From Marinitoga piezophila KA3 (lineage in GTDB: Bacteria > Thermotogota > Thermotogae > Petrotogales > Petrotogaceae): a DNA stretch of 64,000 nucleotides. This document shows, one piece after another, positions 10,173 through 51,763 of the stretch (the first letter of the stretch is position 1; the number at the start of each line of letters is the position of its first letter). The stretch is taken from positions 1,426,001 through 1,490,000 of the forward strand of contig NC_016751.1 of assembly GCF_000255135.1 (NCBI RefSeq). The letters are read 5' to 3'. The position numbers and the translations under genes were made by a program. A model generated the notes under the pieces. That model had not been told where the DNA came from and ran no database searches. It worked only from the letters and a program-made list of their open reading frames with translations.

Positions 10173-10198
10173 TAAAATAAAAAGTTGGAGCTGAAAAA

Positions 10199-11311
10199 AT
10201 GGATTTGTTAAATTATCAAAATATAAAAAAATGTCCGTATTTTGTTTCAAGTTATAAAAGGCCGGGGAAATACTTTGATATAGAATTAAATGGAGTAAAA
10301 ATTACAGCCAATTATGATGATTATGATAAAAGACGTAAGGTAATAAGGATATCGAGAGAATCAAGAAAATTAAAACTAAGTCATATATTTCATATAATTA
10401 GCGTATATCTTTACTTTAAAAAAAAGGGTAAAGAAGTACGCGGAGTTGAAATAACCTTAGAAAGCAAAATGCATTATTTTTCAGAAAGATGGATTATAAA
10501 AAAGCTTCCAACTTTTGAAAAAGAAATAGAAACCTTTAAACGATTAAATGAAAAAAATCCCGGCAATTATTGTAAATTCTGTAAATTAAAAAGCAGATGT
10601 CACAAAGAATTGCTTGAAAAAGGCAATCTAAATATAGTGCCAGGTATTTCAAAAAGTTACCTGAATCTTTTAAAGGATCTGGGAATTAATCCTTTAAAAA
10701 CAGTTGAAAAAAATAGAATTGAGCAGGTTCCTCCGCAGTTCAGGAAACCATTATATAACTTAAAATCATTAATGGAAAATAAACCTATAATAATAAATAA
10801 ATTTGATATTCCTGAGAAATACATAGTATATGATGTGGAAACTTATAAAGAACTTGATTTTCTTCATGGAATATTATATCAGGGAAAATATAAACCATTT
10901 TTAAATGTTCAGAATACAGATGATAACCTTGAAAAATTTTTGAAATTTTTAAAAGGAACAAAAGAGATAATTGTGCATTATGATGTATATGATATAAAAA
11001 GATTGCAATTAATTACCAAGAATCGTTCTCATTTATATAAATATCTCGATAAAATTGAAAACAGGTCATATGATTTATATGAAAAGATTCAAAAGAATGT
11101 GGCATTACCTGTAACTTCATACTCTTTAAAGGATATCAGTCGTTTCTTTGGATTTAAATGGAGAACAGACCTCAATGGATATGCAATATTTATTGAGTAT
11201 AAAAACTTTCTGCGTGGAAATAAGGAAAGTCTGGATAAAATAATTACATATAATGAAGATGATTGCAGAGCTACTGAAAAAATAATGAAAAGCTTAAAGG
11301 AGCTGATGTAA
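10199..11311 (+). CDS. TM0106-type RecB-like / RNase H-fold putative nuclease
   Basis: A 370-residue protein. The N-terminal half has KKCPYF (residues 11-16) and later YCKFCKLKSRC, a Cys pattern like the Fe-S cluster cysteines of RecB/Cas4-type nucleases. The C-terminal half looks like a DEDD RNase H-fold exonuclease: IVYDVET supplies Asp and Glu, HYDVYDIKRL another Asp, and TYNEDDCRAT the last Asp. The combination matches the TM0106/YprB-like family. Substrate and role are unknown. The gene follows glyS by 26 bases and overlaps era by one base (TAATG), so it is co-expressed with housekeeping genes. Confidence 0.75.
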   Translation: MDLLNYQNIKKCPYFVSSYKRPGKYFDIELNGVKITANYDDYDKRRKVIRISRESRKLKLSHIFHIISVYLYFKKKGKEVRGVEITLESKMHYFSERWIIKKLPTFEKEIETFKRLNEKNPGNYCKFCKLKSRCHKELLEKGNLNIVPGISKSYLNLLKDLGINPLKTVEKNRIEQVPPQFRKPLYNLKSLMENKPIIINKFDIPEKYIVYDVETYKELDFLHGILYQGKYKPFLNVQNTDDNLEKFLKFLKGTKEIIVHYDVYDIKRLQLITKNRSHLYKYLDKIENRSYDLYEKIQKNVALPVTSYSLKDISRFFGFKWRTDLNGYAIFIEYKNFLRGNKESLDKIITYNEDDCRATEKIMKSLKELM

Positions 11312-38682: not shown

Positions 38683-38711
38683 ATTATATCAGAATAATTT
38701 TTATTTGTCAA
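38683..38711 (-). promoter_or_regulatory. Consensus promoter of the MATE gene
   Basis: Minus strand TTGACA (38711-38706), exactly 17 bases, TATAAT (38688-38683): a perfect sigma-70-type promoter. The -35 hexamer overlaps the stop region of the upstream laccase-domain gene, giving the transporter its own strong start. Confidence 0.8.
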
Positions 38712-39468
38712 TTAATCCCATTATTGCAGCCATTCTTCCGGAGGTTTTTTCTTTTCTATATGAGAAAAACAAGTCTGCTCTTTTATATGTATCAAGATTA
38801 GAAGATTCAATATTATTTTCTGGAATACCAGATTCAATAAGCTGGTATTTTATAGTCTTCCATATATCGATGTATATTTTGCCGGATTTTCTTATTATAA
38901 TGTCGTTATAGTTAAATTCCTTTTCAAATAATGATTTTACATCGTCTTTTACTTCAAAGGATTCTGGTCCTATTGAGGGACCAATACCAACTAATATATC
39001 TGAAGGGTTGGAATTGAAATTAGTTACCATGGTGTTTATAGTTTTTTGTGCAATTCTTTTTAGGGTTCCTTTCCAGCCAGAATGAGCCAATGCGATTATT
39101 TCTTTTTTATAATCGTAGAAATATATTGGAGTGCAATCTGCATAATATGTAACTAAGAAGATGTTTTTTTCATTGGTTATTAATCCATCTATTTCTTTTA
39201 TGGAATCACTATTTTGGGTTATTATTTTTATTTTATTGTCATGAACCTGATCTGAAAAGACTAAGTTTTCTGGAGGGATATTGAATATTCTGCACAGCGT
39301 TGAATAGTTGTTTTTTATTTGTATATCTGAATCTAATAGTCTTTTGTTGAGATTAAAATCATTGGTGTTTTTGTATATTCTTGTTGTGAATAGATGAAAG
39401 AGGTTGTTGAATTTTTCGAAATGAGAGAATGTAAGGAATTTAAGGCCTTCTTTTTCTTTTAATAACAT
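38701..39468 (-). CDS. Laccase-domain (YfiH/PgeF-like) protein
   Basis: A 255-residue YfiH-family protein. The zinc-binding site is visible: DQVHDNKI (His), TYYADCTPIYFYD (Cys) and ALAHSGWKGTLKRIA (His), plus the C-terminal FFSYRKEKTSGRMAAIMGL. Members act as polyphenol oxidase-like purine nucleoside phosphorylases or edit peptidoglycan precursors. The start is ATG 39468 behind AAGGAG. No partner gene adjoins it. Confidence 0.92.
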   Translation of the reverse strand: MLLKEKEGLKFLTFSHFEKFNNLFHLFTTRIYKNTNDFNLNKRLLDSDIQIKNNYSTLCRIFNIPPENLVFSDQVHDNKIKIITQNSDSIKEIDGLITNEKNIFLVTYYADCTPIYFYDYKKEIIALAHSGWKGTLKRIAQKTINTMVTNFNSNPSDILVGIGPSIGPESFEVKDDVKSLFEKEFNYNDIIIRKSGKIYIDIWKTIKYQLIESGIPENNIESSNLDTYKRADLFFSYRKEKTSGRMAAIMGLIDK

Positions 39469-39640
39469 ATATAATCAGCTCCTTAATGCTATTTTTTACT
39501 ATTATAATAGCATATTCCTACCGAGCGTTGCAAACTCACGGTTATGATTGTTCTTTTTGTGTTTGATTGAAAAAAATAAAAATAATGTTCATTCAAACGG
39601 CAAGAATTTCTGATCCTTGCTCCATTTGAAAATTCTTTGT

Positions 39641-39832
39641 GTTGGAAAAAATAAAAGCTTGTTCAGGCGACTTGAGTGCTGATCTTCGAAAATTGTTCGT
39701 TCTCAGGGGTCGTTGCAGACTCACATCCATGTTCGTCTTCACTCAAAATCACATCCGTGTGATTTTGACCCCTTCCACTCACAATTTTCTCAGGCACTCT
39801 GCGAGCCTTCACTCGCTTTTATTTTTTCCAAC
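39641..39832. repeat. Large imperfect inverted repeat 1 (nested hairpins)
   Basis: Outer arms GTTGGAAAAAATAAAAGC (39641-39658) and its exact complement (39815-39832), 18 bp without mismatch. Nested inside are GAAAATTGT (39688-39696)/ACAATTTTC (39781-39789), AGGGGTC (39705-39711)/GACCCCT (39767-39773), and the apical hairpin CAAAATCACA-TCCG-TGTGATTTTG (39744-39767). The ordered nesting suggests a folded RNA or a foldback DNA element. No T-run follows, so it is not a simple terminator. Confidence 0.8.
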
Positions 39833-39882
39833 TATTCTGTAATCCCCGCTGCGGGAAATTCTTAGTCTTCGTTCATATTATT
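39795..39882. repeat. Direct repeat unit, copy 1
   Basis: An 88-base unit with about five substitutions relative to 39909-39996 and no indels (constant offset of 114 bases). It contains GCGAGCCTTCACTCGC, itself a small hairpin, and a CCCG-CTG-CGGG hairpin. Read on the minus strand, its outer half resembles 39566-39697. Confidence 0.85.
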
Positions 39883-39908
39883 TTTCTACTTTCTTTTATA
39901 TAATCCAA

Positions 39909-39996
39909 CACTTTGCGAGCCTTCACTCGCTTTTATTTTTTCCAACTATCCTGTAATCCCCGCTTCGGGAAATTCTTAGTCTTCACTCATATTATT
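39909..39996. repeat. Direct repeat unit, copy 2
   Basis: Second copy of the 88-base unit. The differences from copy 1 include the loop of the CCCG-CTT-CGGG hairpin, while its stem is unchanged. It also carries the GCTTTTATTTTTTCCAAC arm (39929-39946), so either copy could pair with 39641-39658. Confidence 0.85.
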
Positions 39997-40053
39997 ATTT
40001 TTATTTTCTTTATTAGATTATATTAAAATAAGTAAAACATAAAAGAAAATTGA

Positions 40054-40231
40054 ATAAAAAGATGAACGAATGCTCGAAGATTGCCCGAAAAAACTGCGAA
40101 TGAAGAGGGACAAAAAAAACAGGATGTTTTTTTGAGCGAAGCTTCCCCAGGGATGGGGAATCTGAGCGCCCCAGCGTATATGAGCAGTTTTTGAGGATTA
40201 GCAATCGAGTCGCATGAGTGAATCTTTTTAT
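40054..40231. repeat. Large imperfect inverted repeat 2 (branched hairpin)
   Basis: Outer arms ATAAAAAGAT (40054-40063)/ATCTTTTTAT (40222-40231), then GATTGC (40079-40084)/GCAATC (40201-40206), then AAAAACTGC (40089-40097)/GCAGTTTTT (40184-40192). Inside lie two further hairpins: ACA/TGT flanked by A- and T-runs (40111-40134), and TTCCCCA-GGGA-TGGGGAA (40143-40160). The size (~180 bases), branching and higher GC suggest a structured RNA or a foldback element. It matches none of the common RNAs I can recognise (tmRNA, RNase P, SRP, 6S). Confidence 0.75.
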
Positions 40232-40315
40232 GAAGTTTTCTACAATAAATATTTTTAAGGAATTTTTGTTTTTTTATTTAGTTTGTGAAAAAGTGGAAGT
40301 TGTGATTTTTAAGTC

Positions 40316-42836: not shown

Positions 42837-45728
42837 ATGTATAAAAACCTGAAAAACAGCGTTTTAGAATCAAAAAAAACGCTAAAGGAGTTTATTATTA
42901 AAAACATAGAAAATTTTAAAAAGGAAAATTTAATAATCAGGGAATTTTTAGCAAAGGATAATAATAAAGAAAAATTTATAAATGAAATAACCTTCAACAT
43001 ATTAAGTAAGATTATATCTTCAAAATTATTATATAAAAAAGGCATATTAAAAAATGCGTATGATTACAATGAATTAAAACGATATATACCAGAATTATTT
43101 GATGAATTATATAATATAAAAATTGAAGAAAAATTATTAAAAAAAATACATAATAATTTTAGTAGTGTAGAAGATTGGGATAAAGATGATATTCTGGGAT
43201 GGGCATATCAATATTACAATCTTGATGAAAATATTCCGAAGATACATAAACAATCTCAATTTTATACACCTGAGTGGATAATAGAATATCTTGTTGACAA
43301 TACATTGACAAAATATTATTGCGAAATCTATGATGATTCTGAAATAGCTAATAAATACAAAATACAATATAAGAAACAAGAAAGAGAAATAAAACTTGAA
43401 AATATAAAAATTATAGATCCCGCTTGTGGAAGCGGACATTTTTTAATAAAAGTATATAACCGCTTAAAAGAATTTTATGAAAAACAGGGATATAAGAAAG
43501 AAGAATATATAAAGTTTATACTGGAAAAAAATATTTATGGTATAGATATAGATGAAAAAGGTGTTGAAATAGCAAAGACAATTCTGAAAATAAAAGCACT
43601 GGAAGATGGATATATTAAACCAATAAATTTTAATATAGTTTCTACAAACTTTGATATTGTAAAAGAAGAAGATATTGAAGATATAGAGTTTAAGGAGATA
43701 TTAAAATCTATAAAAAATGAAATTTCTGGATATAAAGAATTAGGGAGTTTAATAACTCTTTCAAAAGAAAATAGAGAAAAGATAATAAAAAAATATGAAA
43801 AATATTCATTATTTACAGAAAAAACAGTTTTAGAAAAACATTATGCAGAAAAAATGAAAAAATATTTGATAATATTATCTCTAAACTATGATATAGTTAT
43901 ATCCAATCCTCCTTATGCAGATTCTCATGATTATACGCCAGAATTGAGAAAACTTATAAGAGAAAGATACTTTGATTTTAGAAAAAACCTGTATTCGTGC
44001 TTTATAAAAAGAAATTATGATTTTTTAAGAGATGGCGGATTGCTTGGTATGATAACCCCACAAACCTTTATGTTTATTAGCAGTTATGAAGATTTAAGAA
44101 AGTTTATAATAAAAAATATGCATATAGAATCTCTTGTTCATTTTGGTCTTGGAGGCGTATTTGAAGATGCACTTGTTGATACCGCCATGTATATTCTTAG
44201 AAAAGAAAAAGGGAATAAAGAAAATAAAAGTTTATTTATAGATTTAAGGGATATAGATTATAACAAAAAGAAGGAAGTATTAGATAACATAATAAAAAAA
44301 GGAAAAGAAAGAAAATATATATATTATGAAAATCAAAACGAATTTAAAAAAATACCGGGCTATCCATTTGTATATTGGATAAATGAAGAAGTAAAAAAAA
44401 TCTTTGAATATGAGAAATTAATAAATTTTGCTGATGTTAGGCAGGGAATTGCAACAGGTGACAATAAAAGATTTTTAAGATATCATTGGGAAGTTCCTCG
44501 TGAAGAGATAAGTTTTAACCACAAAAAAGATGGTAAAAAATGGGTTCCGTATGCAAAAGGAGGACCTTATAATAAATGGTATGGGAATTTATGGTGGGTA
44601 ATAGCCTTTGATGAAGAGAATTATAAACTTTTAAAAAAAATGGGAAATCATTTACCTAACAGACAATACTATTTTAAATCAGGAATAACCTATTCTATGA
44701 CAACATCAAAAGGGCCAACATTCAGATTATTACCTGAAAATTTTTTATTCGATTGTAAAGGAAGTAGCATATTTACTGATAATGAAAATTTTAAATTTGC
44801 ATTACTGGGATTTTTAAATAGCAAATTAGCTTTTTATATATATAGATTTATAGCAGGAAGTGTAGATCTTGAAGTTGGAGATCTGAAAAATATTCCTATT
44901 GCTCCAGGATTATATAAAAATTCAAAAAAAGAAAAAATGCTCATTAAAGCTGTAAAATTAATAATAGCAATAAAAAAACAATTAATTGAAACATCTCCTC
45001 TTGAACTTCATTATATAGAATCACCTCTTCATTCAATAAAGGAAATGCAAAATTTTGAAAATAAAGTAATAAAATACACAAAGCAAAAATATTTGCTGGA
45101 ATTATATATTACAATACTTGAAGGGTTTATAGAAAAAACAATCTTTCAAATATATGGAATAAAGAAAAAAACAATAGAAGAAATATTAAATCAAGAAGGT
45201 ATTCCTGAAATATGGATTGGTCATATAGAAGATGAAATATCTTTTGATATTTCAATTTTAAAAAATAAGTATTTAAATGAATTCAATATAAAAGAGCAGG
45301 ATATACTTATGCTTCAAAAAGAAATAAATAGATTCTTAAAAACAAGAAAAGATAAAAATAAAAAAATAGAAAGAAAAGAATTTGAAGAAGTTTATCTTTC
45401 TAAAAATAGAAAAAATAATGAAGGAAAAATAAAAAGACTTTCGAGGGTATTGAATACAAATCCATTAATAGTGTATAATAATATTAATAATCAATTAATA
45501 TTAAAAGAAAAAGAATATATAAGAGAGCTTATATTCCTTGCCATAAATCATGAATATATAAAAGAAAAAGGGAATATTGAATATATAAAAGAAAAAATCA
45601 ACAGTCTTGGAATTACAGAAGAAATACTAAAAAAATATTCGAAAATTAAAGATTTAGAAGAATATATTAGCGAAAAAATACTTTTAGATCAAAAAAAATA
45701 TTTTAAAAAAAGAGTTCCGTATATATGA
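42837..45728 (+). CDS. PglX-like / type IIG-like adenine-specific DNA methyltransferase
   Basis: A 963-residue protein with an N6-adenine methyltransferase core: SQFYTPEW (140-147), SAM-binding DPACGSG (194-200), GIDIDEKGVEIAK, and catalytic NPPY (357-360). A target-recognition part follows, with VPYAKGGPYNKWYGNLWWV and TYSMTTSKGPTFRLLPENF, a style typical of BREX PglX and some type IIG enzymes. The C-terminal third is helical and Lys-rich. No nuclease motif is clear to me. No PglZ, BrxC or other BREX genes are near, so it is an orphan. It is more AT-rich than its neighbours by eye, in keeping with an acquired gene. Confidence 0.82.
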   Translation: MYKNLKNSVLESKKTLKEFIIKNIENFKKENLIIREFLAKDNNKEKFINEITFNILSKIISSKLLYKKGILKNAYDYNELKRYIPELFDELYNIKIEEKLLKKIHNNFSSVEDWDKDDILGWAYQYYNLDENIPKIHKQSQFYTPEWIIEYLVDNTLTKYYCEIYDDSEIANKYKIQYKKQEREIKLENIKIIDPACGSGHFLIKVYNRLKEFYEKQGYKKEEYIKFILEKNIYGIDIDEKGVEIAKTILKIKALEDGYIKPINFNIVSTNFDIVKEEDIEDIEFKEILKSIKNEISGYKELGSLITLSKENREKIIKKYEKYSLFTEKTVLEKHYAEKMKKYLIILSLNYDIVISNPPYADSHDYTPELRKLIRERYFDFRKNLYSCFIKRNYDFLRDGGLLGMITPQTFMFISSYEDLRKFIIKNMHIESLVHFGLGGVFEDALVDTAMYILRKEKGNKENKSLFIDLRDIDYNKKKEVLDNIIKKGKERKYIYYENQNEFKKIPGYPFVYWINEEVKKIFEYEKLINFADVRQGIATGDNKRFLRYHWEVPREEISFNHKKDGKKWVPYAKGGPYNKWYGNLWWVIAFDEENYKLLKKMGNHLPNRQYYFKSGITYSMTTSKGPTFRLLPENFLFDCKGSSIFTDNENFKFALLGFLNSKLAFYIYRFIAGSVDLEVGDLKNIPIAPGLYKNSKKEKMLIKAVKLIIAIKKQLIETSPLELHYIESPLHSIKEMQNFENKVIKYTKQKYLLELYITILEGFIEKTIFQIYGIKKKTIEEILNQEGIPEIWIGHIEDEISFDISILKNKYLNEFNIKEQDILMLQKEINRFLKTRKDKNKKIERKEFEEVYLSKNRKNNEGKIKRLSRVLNTNPLIVYNNINNQLILKEKEYIRELIFLAINHEYIKEKGNIEYIKEKINSLGITEEILKKYSKIKDLEEYISEKILLDQKKYFKKRVPYI

Positions 45729-46999: not shown

Positions 47000-48541
<1,542 letters not shown>

Positions 48542-48589
48542 TAAGGAGAAAAAAGAAAAGGGTGTCTCTGTTCAGTAGTGAAGGAGTTT

Positions 48590-48666
48590 GGGCTCGTAGC
48601 TCAGGTGGTCAGAGCGCACGCCTGATAAGCGTGAGGTCGGTGGTTCGAGTCCACCCGGGCCCACCA
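48590..48666 (+). tRNA. tRNA-Ile (anticodon GAT)
   Basis: A 77-base tRNA in the 16S-23S spacer with encoded CCA. Acceptor GGGCTCG/CGGGCCC (with one G-T pair), anticodon loop CTGATAA (GAT), T arm GGTGG-TTCGAGT-CCACC. It is the only tRNA in the spacer; no tRNA-Ala follows. Confidence 0.97.
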
Positions 48667-48695
48667 GCTCATTGACAAGTGCATAGTGAAAGATA

Positions 48696-51617
<2,922 letters not shown>

Positions 51618-51648
51618 TGAGTAACTATGCACATGTGAATGAGAGATT

Positions 51649-51763
51649 GAGGGGTGCAGATACCGGATATGGGAACACGCGGACCCATCCCGAACCCGAC
51701 CGTTAAGCATATCCGGGCCGATGGTAGTATGGCTTGTCCATGCGAGAGTAGGTAGCGCCCCTC
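51649..51763 (+). rRNA. 5S ribosomal RNA
   Basis: ~115 bases closed by GAGGGGTGC/GCGCCCCTC, with ACCCATCCCGAACCCG and the GATGGTAGTATGG region characteristic of 5S. It follows 23S by about 30 bases. Confidence 0.95.

What the first reader, a model, noticed from the sequence alone, without database searches (positions are those of the whole stretch)
39566..40231. Cluster of repeats and two ~180-190-base nested inverted repeats in one intergenic region: candidate structured RNAs or a foldback element
Seen directly: an 18-bp perfect outer stem (39641-39658/39815-39832) with three ordered inner stems; a second branched hairpin element (40054-40231) closed by 10 bp; and an 88-base direct repeat at a 114-base offset. 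The stretch 39566-39658 also resembles the reverse complement of the direct-repeat units, so one degenerate unit seems present three times, once inverted. The area is richer in G and C than nearby coding DNA, which in AT-rich thermophiles is a known mark of functional RNA. It matches no RNA family I can recognise. A MITE-like remnant is the main alternative.
Basis: partly seen in the sequence, partly recalled or inferred. Interest (0 to 1): 0.68.

Follow-up and report, generated by a model that had tools for sequence, protein, structure and literature searches.

The report
Mobile repeats carrying TwoAYGGAY-type RNA
The intergenic cluster is one of about 30 scattered copies, in this thermophile's genome, of a jumping hairpin element whose core is a conserved structured RNA with paired GGA loops of the kind bound by the global regulator CsrA, so a mobile element appears to be multiplying likely CsrA-binding sites around bacterial genomes.

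Summary
The region is one of about 31 dispersed intergenic repeat loci in its genome. It carries two units: 39659-39814 (-) and 40064-40221 (+). Over 115 units from 7 genomes of the genus, a three-way-junction RNA structure has compensatory changes in 37 of 46 pairs, with 96% of cells paired against 75% shuffled. G·U exceeds A·C 62 to 18, which picks one strand; both apical loops show GGA (NCANGGAUGN) in 107 of 114 distinct units, a CsrA-type site. Rfam TwoAYGGAY (RF01731) passes its gathering score at sister copies but not at the window copies (38.7 and 37.2 bits, cut-off 43). In sister species units are ~190-200-bp MITE-like elements whose inverted ends match a DDE transposon, with 9-10-bp target duplications and empty sites. 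One insertion shared by two species keeps its structure through a compensatory change. CsrA is encoded. CsrA binding and sponging are inferred, not shown; no gene-orientation bias or own promoter was found.

The parts
39520..40265 (.). whole composite repeat element between two divergent genes (laccase-domain protein on -, NAD synthase on +)
   Evidence: coverage by other copies in the genome rises at about 39520 and falls at about 40265; genes
39659..39814 (-). unit A: TwoAYGGAY-like RNA core, RNA strand is the - strand
   Evidence: R1 171.3 bits (G000:C2:1465659-1465814 -); Rfam RF01731 37.2 bits at 39681-39796 (below gathering score 43)
39641..39658 (-). 3' strand of outer stem P1 of unit A (perfect 18 bp with 39815-39832)
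39815..39832 (-). 5' strand of outer stem P1 of unit A
39745..39766 (-). apical hairpin 1 of unit A, loop CACGGAUG
   Evidence: sequence position; loop conservation
39718..39737 (-). apical hairpin 2 of unit A, loop CAUGGAUG
   Evidence: sequence position; loop conservation
40064..40221 (+). unit B: TwoAYGGAY-like RNA core
   Evidence: R1 167.8 bits (G000:C2:1466064-1466221 +); Rfam RF01731 38.7 bits at 40072-40213 (below gathering score 43)
40054..40063 (+). 5' strand of outer stem of unit B (10 bp)
40222..40231 (+). 3' strand of outer stem of unit B
40112..40133 (+). apical hairpin 1 of unit B, ACAGGAUGU
40143..40160 (+). apical hairpin 2 of unit B, CCAGGGAUGG
39795..39899 (.). direct repeat copy 1 (arm of unit A plus an outer module arm)
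39909..40013 (.). direct repeat copy 2 (duplicated arm)
39566..39640 (.). opposite arm of the outer nested module (AAAATAATGTTCATTCAAACGGCAAGAATTTCTGATCC...)
   Evidence: the same module recurs at many loci; matches inverted to the direct repeat units

Best explanation
The region is a composite, MITE-like mobile element. Its repeated cargo is a structured RNA of the TwoAYGGAY kind: a long stem with conserved internal loops (several readable as tandem G·A) that ends in a three-way junction of two hairpins, each showing a GGA loop. Shown here: the RNA structure by covariation; which strand is the RNA; the loop sequence; the dispersal; insertion with target duplication in sister species; and structure-preserving evolution of one insertion shared by two species. 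Inferred: when a copy lies in a transcribed strand, the paired NCANGGAUGN hairpins bind a CsrA dimer, so transcribed copies act as CsrA decoys or place nearby transcripts under CsrA control. Also inferred: the element spread by borrowing a DDE transposase acting on its terminal repeats, as the TGTCYAAAAAGT ends shared with a transposon in sister species suggest.
For: Covariation: 25 units of the own genome, 192 double-change cells against 65.5 in shuffles (0/500 as high), slid controls 30-48% paired against 96%; 115 units of 7 genomes, 37/46 pairs with compensatory change, 1086 double-change cells against 310. G·U 62 against A·C 18 on the RNA strand. GGA in both apical loops in 107/114 distinct units while stem letters vary, matching the CsrA SELEX consensus RUACARGGAUGU (PMC7652899). 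RF01731 over its gathering score in four genomes of the genus and in none of the 96 other Thermotogota searched. TwoAYGGAY was proposed on motif grounds to bind CsrA (PMC4333381). csrA in the own genome, with the N-terminal MLVL and the REE motif kept by eye. All 8 genomes of the order with R1 hits have csrA, and none of the 18 genomes without a csrA match has units. Mobility: flanking direct repeats mean 9.3 nt against 5.0 in mismatched controls, at least 7 nt in 85% against 13%; ends shared with a DDE_Tnp_1 transposon; empty sites. A shared insertion in G023 and G026 differs by 5 substitutions, read as one A-U to G-C double change, one G·U to G-C and two changes at the N of NGGA, in DNA whose flanks are 83% identical.
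Against: No gene-orientation bias (tandem sense 31, antisense 42), no clear promoter on the RNA strand, and copies behind a co-directional gene are no better preserved than others (p 0.23): many copies may never be transcribed on the RNA strand. Twelve genomes of the order have csrA but no units. G·U pairs are scarce for an RNA family. Inverted ends and target duplications of the window copy itself were not identified; in the own genome they were resolved only for the simple unit L049. The two window copies are below the Rfam gathering score. The transposon sharing the ends is absent from the own genome. No transcript or CsrA-binding data are available.
Confidence: 0.68

Rival explanations
1. 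A DNA-level foldback element: the hairpin is selected as single-stranded or cruciform DNA for transposition, and the GGA loops are part of a transposase or host-factor recognition signal. Arm-to-arm copying produces the paired changes.
For: Target duplications, inverted ends, no orientation bias and no promoter. Very few G·U intermediates in the own genome (8 cells).
Against: G·U exceeds A·C 62 to 18 on one strand only. GGA is 4.2 per unit on that strand against 0.9 on the other. Internal loops that are not self-complementary are kept while stems vary, which arm-to-arm copying would erase. A curated RNA family recognises the cores. The shared insertion keeps structure after insertion.
Confidence: 0.2
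2. Former mobile elements now inert: the structure reflects selection on active parent copies only, and the copies in this genome are neutral relics with no present function.
For: Own-genome copies are composite and partly truncated. No orientation effect on preservation. The transposon with matching ends is absent from the own genome and mostly degraded elsewhere.
Against: One shared insertion is conserved beyond its flanks with structure-neutral changes. Most units have zero broken pairs among the 38 scored (60-72%).
Confidence: 0.3
3. A cis-acting leader or terminator element controlling the neighbouring genes (Rfam files RF01731 as Cis-reg).
For: Units are intergenic and can lie upstream of genes; two short hairpins with T-runs in the region look like terminators.
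Against: Downstream gene co-directional in 56 and opposed in 56 of 112.
Confidence: 0.1

Closest known systems
TwoAYGGAY RNA (Rfam RF01731, clan CL00106; Weinberg 2010, PMC2864571)
   Same: Two apical hairpins with AYGGAY-type loops in a three-way junction on a long stem; same strand; score over the gathering threshold at sister copies; tandem G·A reported for the family (PMC4333381) and readable here.
   Different: Published range is human gut, Gammaproteobacteria and Clostridiales; here it is in Thermotogota, dispersed in up to 72 copies per genome, inside elements with inverted ends and target duplications. The papers found do not describe the family as mobile.
CsrB/RsmZ-type CsrA-sequestering sRNAs
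   Same: Paired GGA hairpin loops of the SELEX type.
   Different: No dedicated promoter or single sRNA gene was found; sites are spread over many mobile copies; binding untested.
MITEs and modular bacterial interspersed repeats (RUP/BOX, REP/BIME type)
   Same: Short, non-coding, intergenic, many copies, nested composites; inverted ends and target duplications in sister species.
   Different: The interior is not just relic sequence but a covarying RNA found in more than one genus.
Bacillaceae-1 RNA (RF01690), reverse strand
   Same: Also proposed as a CsrA-binding RNA with two GGA hairpins (PMC4333381).
   Different: No match to the window region; different family.

Membership tests
TwoAYGGAY RNA (RF01731) | Score at or above the curated gathering score (43 bits) | tested here: inconclusive
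   Window copies 38.7 and 37.2 bits, below; sister copies in the same genome 50.8, 48.0, 45.5 and 43.4 bits, above. The window copies belong by homology to those sisters.
TwoAYGGAY RNA (RF01731) | Two apical hairpins with AYGGAY-type loops | tested here: met
   Window loops CACGGAUG, CAUGGAUG, ACAGGAUGU and CCAGGGAUGG; GGA in both loops in 107/114 distinct units.
TwoAYGGAY RNA (RF01731) | Tandem G·A pairs in the stem | tested here: inconclusive
   GA opposite GA at several internal loops is visible by eye in the alignment and noted for the family (PMC4333381); the tools counted standard pairs only.
CsrA-binding RNA | GGA hairpin loops matching RUACARGGAUGU | tested here: met
   against PMC7652899.
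CsrA-binding RNA | Physical binding to CsrA | not testable with these tools
   Only presence of csrA was shown.
CsrA-sequestering sRNA gene | Expressed small RNA with its own promoter | tested here: inconclusive
   Promoter-like score upstream hardly above the opposite strand (8.48 against 8.23); no transcript data.
MITE | Terminal inverted repeats shared with a transposase-bearing element | tested here: met
   Met in sister species: TGTCYAAAAAGT ends shared with a ~1.0-kb DDE_Tnp_1 transposon. Not met in the own genome, which lacks that transposon.
MITE | Target-site duplication | tested here: met
   26 units with both TGTC ends: duplications of at least 7 nt in 85% against 13% in controls, including L049 of the own genome. 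Not identified for the window copy itself.
MITE | Empty site in related genomes | tested here: met
   Two loci of sister species. At the window locus synteny is broken, so it could not be tested there.
MITE | No coding capacity | tested here: met
   Only mechanical ORFs of 50-67 aa fall inside the window element.

The most novel reading that the evidence does not exclude
A transposable element whose conserved payload is a CsrA-binding RNA: by multiplying and inserting across genomes (Thermotogota and Gammaproteobacteria) it titrates, or rewires the network of, the host's global translational regulator, making TwoAYGGAY a mobile regulatory RNA rather than a fixed sRNA gene.
Probability: 0.4. 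Interest if true: 0.82.

Novelty: new variant of a known kind. Interest (0 to 1): 0.6.

Why it matters
TwoAYGGAY has been an RNA of unknown function since 2010. Showing that it sits inside mobile elements with target duplications, in up to 72 copies per genome, with near-invariant paired GGA loops, turns the CsrA hypothesis into something directly testable. If true, it is a case of a selfish element carrying decoy sites for a global regulator, outside the Gammaproteobacteria where CsrA sponges are mostly studied.

Tried and rejected
Default Rfam scan of the window: no hit in the region; the lower-threshold scan found TwoAYGGAY. An IS200/605-like or attC-like DNA hairpin was considered and set aside for lack of matching features (by eye only). 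Empty site at the window locus: synteny broken, not testable. Orientation or promoter support for an sRNA gene: none clear. Better preservation of copies behind a co-directional gene: no. Boundaries of the gammaproteobacterial copies: variable, left unresolved. Searches for papers joining MITEs with CsrA, or describing repeats in Marinitoga, found none on point.

Full report
What is there. The repeat-covered stretch is larger, about 39520-40265. It lies between two divergent genes, a laccase-domain protein gene on - (38701-39468) and an NAD synthase gene on + (from about 40376) (gene names by eye). The contig is 2,231,407 bases, which matches from memory the Marinitoga piezophila KA3 chromosome; no tool named the genome.

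It is a dispersed repeat. Searching the own genome with the region gave 105 matching pieces, which I grouped into about 31 loci of roughly 115-980 bp. They lie between genes, with few exceptions. Printed side by side, most are mosaics: nested palindromes in which the same modules recur in either orientation.

It is a structured RNA. From 25 complete units of the own genome I wrote one secondary structure: outer stem, short variable helices separated by conserved internal loops, a three-way junction and two apical hairpins. On that alignment 96.1% of cells pair; 192 cells and 23 of 46 pairs show double compensatory changes (shuffles 65.5 cells, none as high); sliding the partners by 1-3 columns drops pairing to 30-48%. 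A covariance model found units in all seven genomes of the genus held (own 36, others 40, 5, 26, 1, 72 and 1), weaker ones in one further genus of the family (6), and none in the remaining 30 genomes of the order. On 115 units of the seven genomes, 37 of 46 pairs have compensatory changes and 1086 double-change cells against 310 in shuffles. That alignment was fitted to the structure, so the own-genome MAFFT alignment is the cleaner test.

Which strand. In 38 well-aligned pairs G·U occurs 62 times and A·C 18 times on the strand that carries GAGGATTAG in its 3' arm (cells are not independent). GGA is 4.2 per unit on that strand and 0.9 on the other. The apical loops read NCANGGAUGN, with GGA in both loops in 107 of 114 distinct units, while the stem letters around them change. 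In the window the RNA strand is - for unit A and + for unit B. Several internal loops can be read as tandem G·A pairs; this is by eye.

What family. At lower threshold, Rfam TwoAYGGAY (RF01731) matches both window units at 38.7 and 37.2 bits, below the gathering score of 43. Sister copies in the same genome reach 50.8 bits, and four genomes of the genus pass the threshold, against none of the 96 other Thermotogota searched. A single pattern scan of the genome collection then hit the same unit repeatedly in two Oceanospirillaceae MAGs, with 23 and 7 RF01731 matches in the two genomes. In a sample of 369 genomes of that class 19 have it, several at the limit of seven candidates scored. High copy number is therefore not peculiar to Marinitoga.

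It is mobile. In sister species many units are simple elements of about 190-200 bp ending in TGTCYAAAAAGT. For 26 units with both TGTC ends the flanking direct repeats average 9.3 nt against 5.0 in mismatched controls, usually 9-10 nt lying about 5 nt outside TGTC. A degraded ~1.0-kb transposon in a sister species has the same ends and a DDE_Tnp_1 domain; its relatives occur in six genomes of the genus but not in the own genome. At one gene pair a unit is present in G026 and absent from the same spacer of G022 and G023. Upstream of a nuclease gene a unit is present in G023 and G026 and absent from five other genomes, including the own one. For the composite own-genome copies, the window copy included, I could not resolve inverted ends or duplications; L049 is the one own-genome unit that showed both.

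Constraint after insertion. The insertion shared by G023 and G026 has flanks about 83% identical, yet the unit differs by only 5 substitutions and 2 indels: an A-U to G-C double change, a G·U to G-C change and two changes at the N before GGA (base-pair reading by eye). G023 holds only five R1 units and the other three I read are of other types, which makes copying from a sister unit unlikely but not excluded.

How it may work. CsrA binds GGA in hairpin loops, consensus RUACARGGAUGU (PMC7652899), and acts as a dimer on paired sites; TwoAYGGAY was proposed as a CsrA-binding RNA from motif matches (PMC4333381). The own genome encodes one CsrA with the usual N-terminus and REE motif. Every genome of the order with units has csrA, but twelve csrA genomes lack units, and related genomes are not independent. 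I infer that transcribed copies bind CsrA. Against a simple sponge gene: no orientation bias, no clear promoter signal, no better preservation behind co-directional genes. Which copies, if any, are transcribed is open.

Noticed in passing
window 42837-45728 +: Large 963-aa gene with methylase motifs (DPACGSGHF, NPPY), probably a type II restriction-modification enzyme, upstream of the rRNA operon (47000-51763).
   Followed up: no
window 10196-11308 +: Ortholog of the nuclease gene whose upstream spacer carries a unit in G023 and G026; here that spacer is empty.
   Followed up: yes
L203-L208 and genomes G103, G104: TwoAYGGAY units are also dispersed in two Oceanospirillaceae MAGs, with longer conserved flanks; element ends not resolved.
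   Followed up: partly
L056, L122, L164: Locus with two oppositely oriented units in G000 and G022 and at least one in G024, between a GTPase gene and an acetyltransferase gene: possible old shared insertion.
   Followed up: partly
L034, L037, L038, L040, L048, L051, L056, L057 and others: Recurrent fusion junction GTTGCAGACTCACGTCCATGTTCGTC-CTTTTGTGTTGTTGATTGA: composite nested units seem to have spread as such in the own genome (by eye).
   Followed up: no
L070, L076, L082, L088: A neighbouring genus (G021) has weaker units with quite different outer stems (GAAATATAAAAA ends) but the same GGA loops.
   Followed up: partly
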